This document shows positions 17,922-22,868 of a DNA stretch of 26,248 nt, piece by piece; within the stretch, counting starts at the first letter, position 1; each line of letters opens with the position of its first letter. The translations under genes were made by a program, and so were the position numbers. This stretch comes from a virus. Where the stretch lies: IMG/VR virus record IMGVR_UViG_3300049259_000271, positions 1 through 26,248 of that record. One strand, written 5' to 3'. The notes under the pieces were generated by a model. The model searched no databases, was not told the DNA's origin, and worked only from the letters and a program-made list of their open reading frames with translations.

Positions 17922-18119
17922 ACAACGTCAACCCCTTGCGGGGCTGCACACAGCAAGACTGGGTCTCCGTACGGAACTGGACAGGTCGAGTGCCACGCCC
18001 CAGCTCTGCATTCGTTCTCCTCCCGCTATCCCAAGCTTTGGAGAGCAACCCCTAAAGGCCTCTGCGGCCCGATGGATGAACAACGGTCCCGGGCGGGGCC
18101 CAGAACCCCGCCCGGGACC
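17922..18119 (+). ncRNA. Candidate structured non-coding RNA
   Basis: The stretch follows a promoter-like motif and ends in a perfect 14-bp stem-loop. Within it are CCCC-TTGC-GGGG (17932-17943), GCTG-CACA-CAGC (17942-17953), the palindrome TCCGTACGGA, and a stem pairing GTTCTCC (18014-18020) with GGAGAGC around a C-rich loop. The C/T-rich CTCCTCCC could pair with ribosome-binding sites. The sequence GCATTCGTT of the promoter motif recurs at 18008-18016, also after an ACGCCCCAG. Overlapping reading frames lack the codon bias of neighbouring genes. No tRNA cloverleaf could be completed. The RNA call is inference. Confidence 0.3.
18085..18119 (+). terminator. Very strong 14-bp stem-loop
   Basis: GGTCCCGGGCGGGG (18085-18098) pairs perfectly with 18106-18119 around the 7-base loop CCCAGAA. 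There is no T-run on either strand, but such GC-rich hairpins often end transcription in actinobacteria. It could close the helicase operon or the candidate RNA. Confidence 0.5.
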
Positions 18120-18508
18120 ACTGAGACTTCGTACGTGATCAGGCTGTGACCTCTTTCTCTTGACGTCGTAGCGGAAGCAGCCCCCTGCGGGGAAGCGCGG
18201 TTGCGTACGAGCGTGCGGCCACCGGCGCTGATCACTCGGCAACAGGGACTCCCCCGTCTCCGCCGGTGGCCGCACAATGAAGCCCCGGAGGGCTCTTATC
18301 CGTCCCTCCGGCAGGGGCAAGGCGGTGTCCAAACCGCTGCGCCATACGGGCCATGTCCTCCCGTAGCCCCGGAAAAGGTCACAGGGAACTTCCCGGGTTC
18401 AGCGTGCTTGTCGAGAAACACCGGCCGCAACCGGTGGACTCCAGGCCGAGGACAGGCCCGGCGTTGTTCACGCGGGAAAAGCGTTCGCCCGTTCCCGAAA
18501 TGAAGCAC
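18120..18508. other. Structured non-coding stretch with serial stem-loops
   Basis: No credible gene is found here; the open frames lack ribosome-binding sites and the phage's codon bias. It contains a perfect 15-bp stem (18213-18227 with 18261-18275) enclosing a 33-base loop. Further stems are CCGGAGGG/CCCTCCGG (18285-18292, 18304-18311), GCGGT/ACCGC, TACGGG/CCCGTA, CACCGG/CCGGTG and CGGGAA/TTCCCG. CCCC-TGC-GGGG (18182-18192) echoes the hairpin at 17932. A string of independent stems fits a structured RNA or a protein-binding region such as an origin; I cannot tell which. Confidence 0.45.
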
Positions 18509-18574: not shown

Positions 18575-18600
18575 GTATGCCCGGACATCCCCAGGACACG

Positions 18601-18638
18601 GCAGAGCCCCCTCCGACGACGAATCGAGGGGGCTCTGC
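18601..18638 (-). terminator. Terminator hairpin for the leftward genes
   Basis: GCAGAGCCCCCTC (18601-18613) pairs perfectly with 18626-18638 around a 12-base loop, 64 bases past the stop of the leftward antirepressor-like gene. It lacks a T-run. With the rightward terminator at 18509 it forms a back-to-back pair between converging units. Confidence 0.5.
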
Positions 18639-18680
18639 CTGACAAACACCCTGCTCACCGGAAGACCAGTGGACCGGATA

Positions 18681-18705
18681 TTGACCCTGACCCTATCAGG
18701 GTCAA
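18681..18705. promoter_or_regulatory. 10-5-10 perfect inverted repeat at the antirepressor gene's stop
   Basis: TTGACCCTGA (18681-18690) and TCAGGGTCAA (18696-18705) are exact reverse complements around CCCTA, covering the stop codon of the leftward gene. As RNA it is a 10-bp stem that could act as a first terminator. As DNA it has the look of a dimeric repressor's operator. Confidence 0.5.
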
Positions 18706-19640
18706 CGGCGCATCAGGGCCGTACGGACGCTGTGGATGTCGACGACCTCACCCTCCCCGGCGTGCTCCATGGCGGGCGGCAGAGTGCTCGGGGGAGTGGG
18801 GACGCGAGCCCCGATGCCCAGGAGGTCAGGACGGCCCTCGTCGCGCATCCGCTGCTGGATCCACTCCAGCCCCTTGACGGTCACCCGGAGCTGGCTGTGC
18901 GCCTCCTTGAAGCCCCCGGACTCATGGTCGGGCCGGGACCTCGGAGCGAGCCGGAGATGGTCGCTGTGGGCCGCGTAGGGCACGTACTGGCCGTCCGCCT
19001 TCCGCTGGGCCATACCCCGGTCCACGATCCAGTCGAACAGGCGCCGGGGACCGACCCGGTCCGAGATCGCCGCGTCCCGCTTGAGAATGTAGGCCGCCTC
19101 GCGGACCGAGTAGTCCTGGCCGGTGTCGGCGAGGGTCTGCCAGGCCTCCGCCGGGGGCTTCAGCTCGTCCCTCTCGGCCTCCGCCTGGGCCTGGAGGAGT
19201 TCGGCCCGCTCGCGATCCTCCACGGAGTCGGCCAGGGCCCGCAGGGCCTCCGAATAGGTCTGAGGCAGAACGTGCTTCGACTGGGCCTGGATGTCCTCCG
19301 CGAACTGGGTCTGGATCACGAAGTATTGCTGGGCCGCCGCGATCTCCGGCTTGCGAGAGTCGCTGTTGAGGAACACGAAGTGGCAGGCCGTCCGGCTCAG
19401 GCGGAAGTCCGTCCCCGTACGTCCGGCGCTTTTTACTGGCACCAGTGAAAAGTGGTCCGGCAGGTTGTAGCCGTTCTTGGACATGACCGCTCGGGCTTCG
19501 TTGATGGCCCGCTGGAAGTTCTGCCAGTTGCTGTAGCCGGTCGGCGCCAAGAGGTCGCGGGCCATCCAGTGCTCACCCCGGTCGTCAACCCGCTTCAGCG
19601 CGTCGAACGGAGTGGTGGTCGACCTGGTCAAGTCGCTCAT
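18702..19640 (-). CDS. Antirepressor-like protein: DinD/BRO-type N-terminus plus KilAC-like C-terminus
   Basis: The 312-aa protein starts at ATG 19640 with GAAGGA about seven bases upstream. Residues 17-110 (EHWMARDLLAPTGYSNWQNF; INEARAVMSKNG; TACHFVFLNSDSRKPEIAAAQQYFV) resemble the DinD/BRO-type domain. Residues 115-160 are a charged, probably coiled-coil helix. Residues 165-270 look like a KilAC domain (DYSVREAAYILKRD; RRLFDWIVDRGMAQRKADGQYVPY; LRVTVKGLEWIQQRM). In temperate phages such two-part proteins relieve repression by binding a repressor; some act in lytic phages with unknown targets. It lies downstream of the winged-helix gene on the same strand and is probably co-transcribed. The domain call is fairly firm; the target is unknown. 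Confidence 0.75.
   Translation of the reverse strand: MSDLTRSTTTPFDALKRVDDRGEHWMARDLLAPTGYSNWQNFQRAINEARAVMSKNGYNLPDHFSLVPVKSAGRTGTDFRLSRTACHFVFLNSDSRKPEIAAAQQYFVIQTQFAEDIQAQSKHVLPQTYSEALRALADSVEDRERAELLQAQAEAERDELKPPAEAWQTLADTGQDYSVREAAYILKRDAAISDRVGPRRLFDWIVDRGMAQRKADGQYVPYAAHSDHLRLAPRSRPDHESGGFKEAHSQLRVTVKGLEWIQQRMRDEGRPDLLGIGARVPTPPSTLPPAMEHAGEGEVVDIHSVRTALMRR
19430..19451. repeat. Imperfect 22-bp inverted repeat inside the antirepressor-like gene
   Basis: TTTTTACTGG (19430-19439) and CCAGTGAAAA (19442-19451) pair around CA with one mismatch. The T- and A-runs stand out from the GC-rich surroundings. It could be an internal protein-binding site; no function is shown. Confidence 0.4.
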
Positions 19641-19711: not shown

Positions 19712-20632
19712 TCACACCGACAAGGGGTCGGCCCAGCGGGCCCAGTCCTCGGCCGTAGAGGTCCGCCACAGCTCGGCCAGGCGCTCGATGCCCTCCCGGT
19801 GCTCCGCCGTCTCGGTCCCGTCCAGTTCGGCCAAGAGAGCGTCGGCCAGGGCCGGTCCGTGGTTCGGGCGCTGCGGCTGGGTGATCCGGATCTGCTCCTC
19901 GGCGTGTTGGCGCAGGAGGTTGCCCTCGCGGATCCGCAGGTTCATCGGGTCGAAGCGGTCGTCCAGGAACCAGGTCCAGTCCAGTCGGTACCGGGTCGCC
20001 CTGGCCTTCCCGGTCCGCAGGAGGATCCCGCAACCGAAGCTCTCGAATTTCTTGGCCAGGCGCTTGGCCCTGTCGGTCCCACCGGCCAGCTCGGCCCACT
20101 CCTTCGCCGACAGCTCCACGGACTCCAGGCCGGTCAGGACCGCGATCCTCCAGCCCTCCGGCCCCAGTTCGGTCTTCTTCCTGCTCCAGATGTCCAGGGC
20201 CGGGTCCATCACCGCCAATCGGTGCGCGAGTGAGTCACCATCTACATAGGAGTTCCAGCCCTTCATCCCTACAGAGATTGAAGGGCTCTTAGAGGTATAT
20301 GAGCTGGTGACTCGTTCCCGCACCGATTCGGCGAGACGGTAGATCGAGACCTCACGGCCGTCGGAGTCCCAGGACTTACCGCGCTCGACTGTCTGCACGA
20401 GACCGTGGGCGGAGAGGCCCCAGGCGTGGGCGGAGAGGGTCTCCAGGACGGAGTTGAAGGCGACCCCGGCGGAGCGCTCCAGAGCGCGCATGCCCTGCTG
20501 GTCGGGATCGAGGTACAGGGCGAACGCGATGCGGCACTCCACGATCGCGTCGGGATGGTCACGCAACACGGACCTGATGTCACCAAGGTCAACGTGCAAT
20601 GTGGTAGGTGCTGCGGTAGCGTGATTGGACAC
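19712..20632 (-). CDS. Tandem winged-helix-like DNA-binding protein (initiator or regulator)
   Basis: The frame is open from 20929, but that version would swallow the divergent promoter region. GTG 20632 is the only usable start just before the conserved-looking sequence, though its ribosome-binding site is weak. The product is 306 aa. Residues 45-100 (QGMRALERSAGVAFNSVLET, then GLVQTV and DGREVSIYRL) and 160-222 (LSAKEWAELAGGTDRAKRLA, then CGILLRTGKARATRYRLDW) each read like a winged helix: recognition helix, then a two-strand wing. The Ser/Thr-rich linker between them is encoded by a GC-poor patch holding a nested inverted repeat. Two winged helices around a linker are typical of replication initiators, but a transcription regulator is equally possible. 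I found no close family by eye. Confidence 0.6.
   Translation of the reverse strand: MSNHATAAPTTLHVDLGDIRSVLRDHPDAIVECRIAFALYLDPDQQGMRALERSAGVAFNSVLETLSAHAWGLSAHGLVQTVERGKSWDSDGREVSIYRLAESVRERVTSSYTSKSPSISVGMKGWNSYVDGDSLAHRLAVMDPALDIWSRKKTELGPEGWRIAVLTGLESVELSAKEWAELAGGTDRAKRLAKKFESFGCGILLRTGKARATRYRLDWTWFLDDRFDPMNLRIREGNLLRQHAEEQIRITQPQRPNHGPALADALLAELDGTETAEHREGIERLAELWRTSTAEDWARWADPLSV
20232..20313. repeat. Nested inverted repeat in a GC-poor patch; candidate origin or operator
   Basis: Outer arms GAGTCACCA (20232-20240) and TGGTGACTC (20305-20313) are perfect. Inner arms AGCCCTTCA (20257-20265) and TGAAGGGCT (20279-20287) are also perfect, nearly concentric (gaps of 16 and 17 bases between arms). 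The patch is close to 50% GC, with codons such as tat, gta, gat and tca that are scarce nearby. It lies within the winged-helix gene, over its linker. Confidence 0.5.
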
Positions 20633-20715
20633 GTGAATATGGGCCTGTCTGTCGTTGGTAGCGAGGCGGGTCCGAGCGTCGGGGCTGGCAGGCCCTAGAC
20701 GCTCAACACATGGCG

Positions 20716-20743
20716 ATCGTACCTCGCGAAGGGCGAGTCGCAA
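20716..20743 (-). promoter_or_regulatory. Leftward promoter for the winged-helix/antirepressor pair
   Basis: On the minus strand TTGCGA (20743-20738) and TACGAT (20721-20716) are separated by 16 bases, a fair match to the vegetative consensus. The spacer holds the inverted repeat CTCGC/GCGAG, a possible operator. The predicted leader to GTG 20632 is roughly 75-80 bases. Confidence 0.45.
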
Positions 20744-20779
20744 GAGGGGCCCCAGGGAAACTTGGGGCCCCTCGTTTTT
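20744..20779 (+). terminator. Rightward intrinsic terminator with T5 run
   Basis: GAGGGGCCCCA (20744-20754) pairs perfectly with TGGGGCCCCTC (20763-20773) around an 8-base loop and is followed by GTTTTT. No rightward gene precedes it within 2.8 kb, so it probably insulates the DinG-like unit from antisense read-through. Its T-run belongs to the palindrome at 20774-20785. Confidence 0.6.
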
Positions 20780-20797: not shown

Positions 20798-20858
20798 GCC
20801 CCAACAATCCTTGGGGTAGTCTCTGGAGTGCCAGAGACGATCCCGCCAGGAGGCGCCC
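20798..20858 (+). promoter_or_regulatory. Promoter motif and leader of the DinG-like gene
   Basis: GCCCC plus AACAATCCTTGGGGTAG (20798-20819) includes an inverted repeat CCCCAA-N6-TTGGGG. TAGTCT (20817-20822) may be the -10. A second repeat, TCTCTGG-AGTG-CCAGAGA (20820-20837), falls at the expected start point. The leader shares GCCAGAGAC and AGGAGGCGCCC with the leader at 23207-23255. The start of the gene is fixed by AGGAGG at 20848-20853. Confidence 0.5.
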
Positions 20859-22868
20859 ATGACCACCTTCCCCGAGACCTTCACCCCCGGGCCCCGTACG
20901 TGGGACGACGTGGAGGTCAACCTCGCCAAGGAGCTGCCGGGCTACGAGCCCCGCGTGCCCCAGCAGGTACTGGCTCTGGGGATCCAGGAGGCCATGACCG
21001 AGGGCGCCCACCTCCTCGCGCAGGCGGGCTGCGGCACCGGCAAGTCCATCGGCGGAACGGTCCCGATGATCCTGGCCGCCAAGGCCGCCAAGACCCGCGT
21101 GGTCGTCGCCACCGCCACCAAGGCGCTCCAGGAGCAGTACGCGGTCAAGGACCTGCCGTTCCTCCAGGAGAAGAGCGGCGTCGACTTCACCTGGGCGCTC
21201 GTCAAGGGCCGCTCCAACTACGCCTGCGCGGCCAAGCTCGCCGGGGAGGACATGGAGCGCCACCCGGTCGCCATGGCCGTCCGCGAGGAGCTGGAGGCCA
21301 CCCCCGAGCACGACGGCGACCGCGAGCACTTCACGACCGAGATCGACGACATGAGCTGGATGAAGCTCTCCTCGTCCTCGAACGAGTGCCCCGGCAAGTC
21401 CGAGTGCCCCTTCGGCGCCATCTGCTACGCCGAGGCGGTCAAGGAGCGCGGCCAGCAGGTCGACGTGGTGATCACCAACCAGGCCATGCTGATGACGGAC
21501 GTCGCGATCCGCGAGAAGACCCGTGACCGCGAGCAGGGCCCGGTGGCCATGCTGGGCGACTACGGCATGGTGCTCTTCGACGAGGGCCACGAGCTGCCCG
21601 AGTACGCGATGAACGCGCTCGGCAACGACATCACCGGTACCGGCATGTCCCTGGCCGTCCGCGATGTCGTCAGCTTCGCGGCCCTGCACGGCACCGACCT
21701 CTCCTACCGCGCCGAGGACATGGGCCGGATCATGGAGCGCCTCAACGGCCTCCTCCTGCCGCTCGGAGGGAACGCCGTCACCCTCGCCTGGTTCGCAGAG
21801 AACTTCGAGCCCTTCACCGACGTCATGGAGCTGTTCAAGCTCCTGCGCCTGGACCTCCAGTCCCTGGGGATCCGCAGCGAGGCCGACAAGGAGAACGCCC
21901 GCCGGAAGATCCTCTTGACGCGTCTGAGCAACGCCATGGCGACTCTGGAGGAGCTGCTCGTCTCCGAGGACGCCGACCGCGTCCGCTGGATCGAGACCTA
22001 CGAGGTGCGCGGCGAGACCCGCTGGCGGATGAAGGTCGCGCCGGTCCAGGTCGGCCCGTGGCTGGCCCGGAACCTCTGGCCGTTCGTGTCCGCCGTGATC
22101 ATGTCCGCCACCCTGTCGGCCGGTCGCAACAGCGACGGCTCGAAGGACTTCTCCTACATCGAGCGCACCTTGGGCCTGTACGGCGCCCGCTCGGTGGACG
22201 TCGGCACGCCCTTCGACTTCGGCCAGCAGGCCCTGATGTACGTGCCGGACAAGAACGTCCCGAACCCCAAGGACCGGGGCGCCTGGATGGCCCGCACGAT
22301 GGCCGACACGCTCCAGCTCATCGACGCGGCCAAGGGCGGCGCGCTGCTGCTCTTCACGAGCCGTACCGCCATGAAGGAGTCCTTCGAGAACCTCTCGGAG
22401 GGCCTGGAGAACCGGGGTCTGACCGCGCTCATGCAGGGTGATGGCCAGACCAACAAGGAGCTGGCCCGGATCTTCAAGGAGGACACCCATTCGGTCCTCT
22501 TCGCCCTGAAGTCCTTCTTCGTCGGCGTCGACATCCCGGGCGAGGCCTGCCGCCTGGTGATCATCGACAAGATGCCCTTCCCGGTCCCCTCCGACCCGAT
22601 CTTCGCGGCCCGGTCCCTGGCCGAGGAGCGCGCGGGGCGCCGGTCCTTCTCCACCCTGTCCATCCCGATGATGACCCTGACTCTGGAGCAGGGTGTGGGC
22701 CGTCTGATCCGGACCAAGGAGGACCGGGGTGTCGTGGCGATCATGGACTCCCGGCTCAGCTCCACCCCGTACGGCCGCTCGATCGTCAGTGCGCTGCCTG
22801 ACTTCCCGACCACCACGAAGCTCTCGGACGTCCGGGACTTCTACGCCGGGAAGAGCTTCGGCCGGTGA
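20859..22868 (+). CDS. DinG/XPD-like Fe-S superfamily 2 helicase
   Basis: The 669-aa protein starts at ATG 20859 behind AGGAGG. Motif I is AGCGTGKS (56-63) and motif Ia is ATATKALQEQ. Four cysteines sit between motifs I and II as in Fe-S helicases: Cys123 (NYACAAK), Cys177, Cys183 and Cys189 (NECPGKSECPFGAICYAE). Motif II is DEGH (241-244). FFVGVDIPGEACRLVIIDKM and EQGVGRLIRTKEDRG are motifs V and VI. Length and layout match DinG. Family members unwind DNA, D-loops, R-loops or DNA-RNA hybrids 5' to 3', so a role in phage replication, recombination or R-loop clearance is likely. It has its own promoter-like motif and overlaps the next gene by four bases. I see no fused exonuclease domain. Confidence 0.88.
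   Translation: MTTFPETFTPGPRTWDDVEVNLAKELPGYEPRVPQQVLALGIQEAMTEGAHLLAQAGCGTGKSIGGTVPMILAAKAAKTRVVVATATKALQEQYAVKDLPFLQEKSGVDFTWALVKGRSNYACAAKLAGEDMERHPVAMAVREELEATPEHDGDREHFTTEIDDMSWMKLSSSSNECPGKSECPFGAICYAEAVKERGQQVDVVITNQAMLMTDVAIREKTRDREQGPVAMLGDYGMVLFDEGHELPEYAMNALGNDITGTGMSLAVRDVVSFAALHGTDLSYRAEDMGRIMERLNGLLLPLGGNAVTLAWFAENFEPFTDVMELFKLLRLDLQSLGIRSEADKENARRKILLTRLSNAMATLEELLVSEDADRVRWIETYEVRGETRWRMKVAPVQVGPWLARNLWPFVSAVIMSATLSAGRNSDGSKDFSYIERTLGLYGARSVDVGTPFDFGQQALMYVPDKNVPNPKDRGAWMARTMADTLQLIDAAKGGALLLFTSRTAMKESFENLSEGLENRGLTALMQGDGQTNKELARIFKEDTHSVLFALKSFFVGVDIPGEACRLVIIDKMPFPVPSDPIFAARSLAEERAGRRSFSTLSIPMMTLTLEQGVGRLIRTKEDRGVVAIMDSRLSSTPYGRSIVSALPDFPTTTKLSDVRDFYAGKSFGR

What the first reader, a model, noticed from the sequence alone, without database searches (positions are those of the whole stretch)
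20232..20313. Possible replication origin inside an initiator-like gene
Two perfect, nearly concentric 9-bp inverted repeats occupy a GC-poor, codon-atypical patch that encodes the linker between two winged-helix-like domains. Phage lambda has its origin inside gene O, over the linker-coding part, so the arrangement is reminiscent. The neighbouring helicases and exonuclease fit. Origin function is inference; an operator or internal promoter is the alternative.
Basis: partly seen in the sequence, partly recalled or inferred. Interest (0 to 1): 0.6.

Follow-up and report, generated by a model that had tools for sequence, protein, structure and literature searches.

The report
Stem-loop origin candidate inside phage gene
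A large soil phage, probably of actinobacteria, carries inside one of its genes a long, evolutionarily preserved DNA stem-loop around the weakest-melting stretch of the region, most likely the place where copying of the phage genome begins, although an RNA or regulatory role is not excluded.

Summary
The two 9-bp inverted repeats belong to one element: two 24-bp inverted arms (20217-20240, 20305-20328; 21/24 complementary) around a 64-bp core that is the weakest 60-bp duplex of the 26-kb window. It lies in the linker-coding part of a leftward orphan gene (19712-20632).

All four relatives found (three distinct sequences; 59-78% protein identity) keep gene and element. Synonymous resampling almost never gives such arms (at most 1/20,000). 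Third-position GC in the core is 0.47-0.73 against 0.87-0.91 elsewhere. Arm changes are compensated. So selection acts on the nucleic acid.

The origin reading is favoured, not proven. In two distant phages the gene upstream of the same helicase is an HTH_36 initiator-type gene whose linker holds lambda-style iterons. The window family has DnaB and a DnaC-like loader but no HTH_36 initiator, and its 156-kb relative shows no other iteron array. The element itself is not lambda-like: one inverted pair, no direct iterons, no O homology. Compensatory pairing keeps an RNA or ssDNA hairpin as a serious rival; operator or looping is third. GC skew was uninformative. The two winged-helix domains are unproven.

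The parts
19712..20632 (-). Host gene of the element: 306-aa orphan DNA-binding-like protein (probable winged helix - linker - winged helix - helical tail), GTG start; candidate initiator
   Evidence: ORF and translation; relatives at 77%, 60% and 59% identity, protein alignment; no significant Pfam/PHROG/NCBIfam/PDB match; low-confidence model
20217..20240 (.). Arm 1 (24 bp) AATCGGTGCGCGAGTGAGTCACCA
   Evidence: Inverted partner of arm 2; conserved in all relatives with compensatory changes; absent elsewhere in the window and the 156-kb relative
20305..20328 (.). Arm 2 (24 bp), on the - strand AATCGGTGCGGGAACGAGTCACCA
   Evidence: As arm 1; 10 of 11 conserved-residue codons in the arms identical in all four sequences against 63 of 134 elsewhere, p = 0.009
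20241..20304 (.). AT-enriched core between the arms, candidate unwinding element; contains an inner 9-bp hairpin
   Evidence: GC 0.47 and weakest 60-bp duplex of the window; GC3 0.50 against 0.89 outside, also depressed in all relatives
20257..20287 (.). Inner hairpin AGCCCTTCA/TGAAGGGCT, 13-nt loop
   Evidence: inner pairs with compensatory changes; weakly significant against synonymous shuffles
20714..20743 (-). Probable leftward promoter of the gene (TTGCGA - about 16 bp - TACGAT); the TACGAT segment is conserved in all relatives
   Evidence: Read from the sequence and alignment; the consensus scanner did not list it; inference
20744..20778 (+). Rightward intrinsic terminator between the divergent genes, kept in all four sequences
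   Evidence: no convincing + strand gene lies between 17893 and here
20859..22868 (+). DinG/XPD-type helicase, first gene of the replication operon, divergent from the element's gene
   Evidence: Helicase_C_2 E 5e-37, phrog_2488 E 5e-58
18702..19640 (-). Antirepressor (KilAC/ANT), next gene of the leftward operon
   Evidence: ANT E 3e-16

Best explanation
The element is the phage's own replication origin, buried in the gene of its initiator. The two inverted 24-bp arms are binding sites for the protein encoded around them (two DNA-binding domains would fit two conserved blocks per arm, AATCGGTGCG and GTCACCA, with a more variable middle). Binding, helped by supercoiling and possibly by extrusion of the arms as a cruciform, melts the weak 64-85-bp core; the phage DnaC-like loader then places DnaB there, and the phage primase, SSB and DnaE-type polymerase encoded in the adjoining operon extend the forks. 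Shown here: the element, its conservation, the low-stability core, selection on the nucleic acid, the replication-gene neighbourhood, and embedded iteron arrays in syntenic initiator-type genes of distant relatives. Inferred: that the protein is the initiator, that it binds the arms, that the core melts, that replication starts here.
For: All relatives keep protein and element. Arms are far beyond what the protein sequence forces; GC3 dips in the core in all of them, although its sequence has diverged; the core is the weakest duplex of the window and among the weakest 0.1% of positions in the 156-kb relative. The gene is divergent from, and next to, an operon holding DinG helicase, primase, SSB and DNA polymerase with DnaB and, in two relatives, a DnaC-like loader. 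In L007 and L008 the gene upstream of the same helicase is an HTH_36 initiator-type gene whose linker holds 22-bp-spaced iterons, plus an AT-rich stretch in L007 and a GC3 dip in L008; the window family lacks HTH_36. No other iteron array in the 156-kb relative: its only strong array encodes Asp/Ser repeats. The arms occur once per genome. Precedent: repABC oriV lies in an A+T-rich part of repC without iterons, and silent mutations there abolish replication (PMC3155836).
Against: No direct iterons; GC skew shows no switch at the site. The protein has no detectable similarity to any initiator, the structure models are poor, and the L007/L008 parallel is by position only and in opposite orientation. 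The compensatory pairing, including inner pairs, is more than two protein sites would need. Only three distinct relatives, from two clades.
Confidence: 0.48

Rival explanations
1. The element works as RNA (or as single-stranded DNA): a long hairpin in the leftward mRNA that controls expression or decay of the gene-antirepressor operon (for example an RNase III site), or a rod-like antisense RNA from the + strand that ends at the terminator at 20744-20778.
For: RNAalifold finds 32 pairs, 7 with changes on both sides, exceeding nearly all shuffles. The arms keep two wobble pairs on the + strand where the - strand has mismatches. A rightward terminator with no gene to terminate is conserved in all four sequences.
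Against: Both strands fold about equally well and the evidence points to different strands in arms and core. The core is enriched in A+T at synonymous sites, which a stable RNA does not need. Inner structure is only weakly above synonymous shuffles. No Rfam family at the gathering threshold.
Confidence: 0.25
2. The arms are a pair of operators for the encoded regulator or another phage repressor, which loops the 64-85-bp core and shuts its own operon off, about 300 bp downstream of the promoter.
For: Arms behave as two copies of one site with parallel changes; the +21-bp spacing of L004 is two helical turns; the gene sits at a divergent regulatory node beside an antirepressor.
Against: No copy of the site near either promoter or anywhere else in the 156-kb relative; looping does not explain the AT-enriched core or the inner paired changes.
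Confidence: 0.15
3. A recombination, packaging or partition site, or the relic of an in-frame palindromic mobile element now kept only by chance and protein need.
For: Palindromic elements inside genes and structured recombination sites are known (general knowledge); the core has atypical composition.
Against: One copy per genome, same position in all relatives; the core kept low GC3 despite sequence divergence and the arms stayed complementary, so it is not a decaying relic; no bacterial genome hit for the paired arms.
Confidence: 0.08

Closest known systems
Phage lambda ori inside gene O (and Stx phage relatives)
   Same: Origin placed in the middle of the initiator gene, with an AT-rich stretch (PMC7466680)
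   Different: Lambda has 4-6 iterons in series, each an imperfect inverted repeat, beside the AT-rich region; here one inverted pair of 24-bp arms flanks the AT-rich core, and the protein has no HTH_36 or O-type match
repABC plasmid oriV inside repC
   Same: Origin in the central part of the initiator gene, A+T-rich, no iterons; silent mutations of the A+T region kill replication (PMC3155836)
   Different: The passages read report no inverted arms; no RepC-type family match for this protein; alphaproteobacterial plasmids, not phages
L007/L008 large phages: HTH_36 initiator-type gene with 22-bp-spaced iterons in its linker, upstream of the same DinG helicase
   Same: Same position next to the helicase, linker-coding part with repeated sites and atypical composition
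   Different: Same-strand orientation, five to six direct iterons, unrelated protein
Mycobacteriophage RepA origins (Miko, Rachaly)
   Same: Origin suspected within or just upstream of an HTH replication gene transcribed against the structural genes (PMC7157519)
   Different: No repeats were identified there; no match of this protein in the phage collection

Membership tests
Lambda-type origin in an O-type gene | Initiator of the Phage_rep_O / HTH_36 type | tested here: not met
   No Pfam hit, no HTH_36 in the record or relatives
Lambda-type origin in an O-type gene | Four or more iterons in series, about one to two helical turns apart | tested here: not met
   Only one inverted pair; no direct family in the linker; L007 and L008 do meet it
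Lambda-type origin in an O-type gene | AT-rich, easily melted stretch next to the sites, inside the gene | tested here: met
   Core GC 0.47, weakest 60-bp duplex of the window
Lambda-type origin in an O-type gene | Helicase loader (P/DnaC type) and DnaB in the replication module | tested here: inconclusive
   In relatives G003 and G004 a DnaC/IstB-like loader next to DnaB; in G001/G002 only DnaB found; the window ends before this place
Lambda-type origin in an O-type gene | Initiation of replication at the site | not testable with these tools
   Needs infection time course or plasmid assay; GC skew uninformative
repABC-type origin within repC | Protein of the RepC family | tested here: not met
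   No Pfam or NCBIfam match of that kind, no plasmid tblastn match
repABC-type origin within repC | A+T-rich central part of the gene, without iterons | tested here: met
   GC3 dip in all relatives; no iterons
Conserved RNA hairpin | Compensatory base changes that keep a stem | tested here: met
   7 of 32 pairs with double changes, but only three distinct relatives and the structure was derived from the same alignment
Known Rfam family | Score above gathering threshold | tested here: not met
   No match in the window; the permissive search on L001 gave only sub-threshold matches

The most novel reading that the evidence does not exclude
A new kind of embedded phage origin: an orphan two-domain initiator whose gene carries a single long inverted-arm (cruciform-forming) origin around an AT-rich core instead of iterons, maintained by compensatory evolution against the coding sequence.
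Probability: 0.3. Interest if true: 0.68.

Novelty: new variant of a known kind. Interest (0 to 1): 0.5.

Why it matters
If it is an origin, it gives a directly testable start point of replication for a group of large, so far uncultured phages, and a second architecture (inverted arms around a weak core) for origins hidden inside initiator genes beside the lambda iteron type. If it is an RNA, it is a long conserved hairpin inside a phage gene at a divergent control node. In either case a protein-coding stretch is under clear double selection, so silent-mutation experiments can separate the roles.

Tried and rejected
Chance or codon-driven palindrome: rejected by synonymous shuffles and resampling. 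Recent insertion: rejected, same place in all relatives. Repeat of the site elsewhere (operators, iterons): none in the window or the 156-kb relative. Known RNA family: none at the gathering threshold. Bacterial or plasmid copies: none for the protein or for the paired arms in bacterial genomes. Hits L009-L014 to the loose arm pattern look like chance: only the outer 10 bp match and none encodes the protein. GC-skew test on G001: no switch at the site. AlphaFold and Foldseek for the protein: confidence too low; best fold hits, among them winged-helix regulators and a Rep-DNA complex, are all at E above 0.6 and not used. Strand of the hairpin: undecided. Racecar-type Arthrobacter phages: no such gene annotated beside their helicase.

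Full report
OBSERVATION. The window is a 26-kb piece of a large contractile-tailed phage (baseplate J, tape-measure, virion proteins). The leftward gene 19712-20632 encodes a 306-aa protein. A scan of all 24-bp inverted repeats puts it first in the window and joint first in its 156-kb relative; five resampled windows reached 18-19. Both strands fold far better than dinucleotide shuffles and than synonymous-codon shuffles. The core is 47% GC in a 67% GC sequence and is the weakest 60-bp duplex of the whole window.

RELATIVES. The protein has no match among phage or plasmid records, in the bacterial genome collection or in protein-family libraries. Going through the neighbouring helicase gave four viral contigs that keep it: L002 and L003 (same sequence, 77%), L004 and L006 (about 60%). 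All carry the arms at the same codons. Arm complementarity in window, L002, L004 and L006 is 21, 21, 23 and 22 of 24, against 12.5-14.4 expected when synonymous codons are redrawn (at most 1 in 20,000 as good). In the arms 10 of 11 conserved residues keep the very same codon in all four sequences, elsewhere 63 of 134 (p = 0.009). Two arm positions changed in both arms at once: position 17 A to T between the clades and position 23 C to T in L002, the latter a silent change matched by a Gly-to-Ser change in the other arm. GC at third positions falls in the core to 0.50, 0.47, 0.73 and 0.50, against 0.87-0.91 outside and 0.90-0.92 expected for the same residues; only 0.06% of 20-codon windows inside well-called genes of the relative are as low as 0.45. 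The core sequence itself has diverged, so low GC3 is being kept. The arms occur nowhere else in the window or in the 156-kb relative. L004 has 21 bp more in the core, two helical turns.

STRUCTURE OR BINDING SITES. A consensus fold over the four sequences gives 32 pairs, 7 with changes on both sides, above nearly all shuffles and all slid controls; the structure was derived from the same alignment and there are only three distinct relatives. On the + strand the arms keep two wobble pairs that are mismatches on the gene strand, while the inner part is better on the gene strand, so the strand cannot be named. The same data also fit two copies of one protein site that changed together: the ends of each arm are conserved, the middle less so.

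NEIGHBOURHOOD. Right of the element, divergent, stands a DinG/XPD-type helicase that opens the replication operon; left of it follows a KilAC antirepressor. In the 156-kb relative the operon runs on to metallophosphoesterase, DnaB, primase, SSB and DNA polymerase. In G003 and G004 a DnaC/IstB-like loader stands beside DnaB; no HTH_36 initiator is found in the window family, and none of the genes between helicase and loader in L004 looks like one (reading of the ORFs). A rightward intrinsic terminator lies between the divergent genes in all four sequences.

AN INDEPENDENT PARALLEL. Two more distant phages (L007, L008; helicase 39-40% identical) gave no match to this protein. Upstream of the same helicase they carry an HTH_36-type gene (for L008, for both; the L007 match is just under the cut-off), in L008 followed by an AAA/IstB-type loader. 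The linker of that gene in L008 drops in GC3 to 0.45-0.6 and holds about 24-bp palindromic units of the type GTAACAGCG..CCCGTTACG, partly at 22-bp steps; L007 has six units GTCTCAGAnnGAGAC, followed by an AT-rich stretch. These look like textbook lambda-type origins inside initiator genes. The window family has a different protein and a different repeat layout in the same neighbourhood, which is the best reason to read its element as an origin too. It remains an argument by position.

KNOWN CASES. Lambdoid origins lie in the middle of gene O with iterons and an AT-rich region (PMC7466680). The oriV of a repABC plasmid lies in an A+T-rich part of repC without iterons, and silent changes to that part abolish replication (PMC3155836). 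For RepA mycobacteriophages an origin inside repA has been suspected (PMC7157519). The element shares 'inside the initiator gene, weak core' with these, and differs in having one long inverted pair of arms. It is not a member of the lambda type: iterons and O-type protein were tested and not met.

VERDICT. Origin is the best single reading (0.48), an RNA/ssDNA hairpin next (0.25), operator or loop third (0.15). GC skew could not help. The winged-helix assignment remains plausible but unproven because the models are poor.

Noticed in passing
L024:5690-6420 (156-kb relative G001, 45.7-46.4 kb): Two Y-RNA-like (YrlA) RNAs with tRNA-like, permuted-looking modules and five copies of GATGCGAAnnn.GGG.TTCCTTC, directly beside a TROVE/Ro60-type gene with a VWA domain (L024:6429-8147) and near a tRNA-His guanylyltransferase (Thg1) gene: a phage-borne Ro-Y RNA set; the YrlA matches are below the gathering score.
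   Followed up: partly
L007:4328-4560 and L008:4304-4490: Clear lambda-style iteron arrays inside HTH_36 initiator-type genes of two roughly 150-kb phage contigs, probable origins.
   Followed up: partly
window 20744-20778: Conserved rightward intrinsic terminator with no convincing rightward gene in the 2.8 kb before it; suggests an antisense transcript across the leftward operon or an insulator for the helicase promoter.
   Followed up: partly
window 18085-18119, 18213-18275, 18600-18639: Three perfect 14-15-bp inverted repeats in the region of the leftward operon.
   Followed up: no
window 20818-20842: Inverted repeat GTCTCTGG AGTG CCAGAGAC just before the helicase start, possible operator; in the relatives only parts of it are kept.
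   Followed up: no
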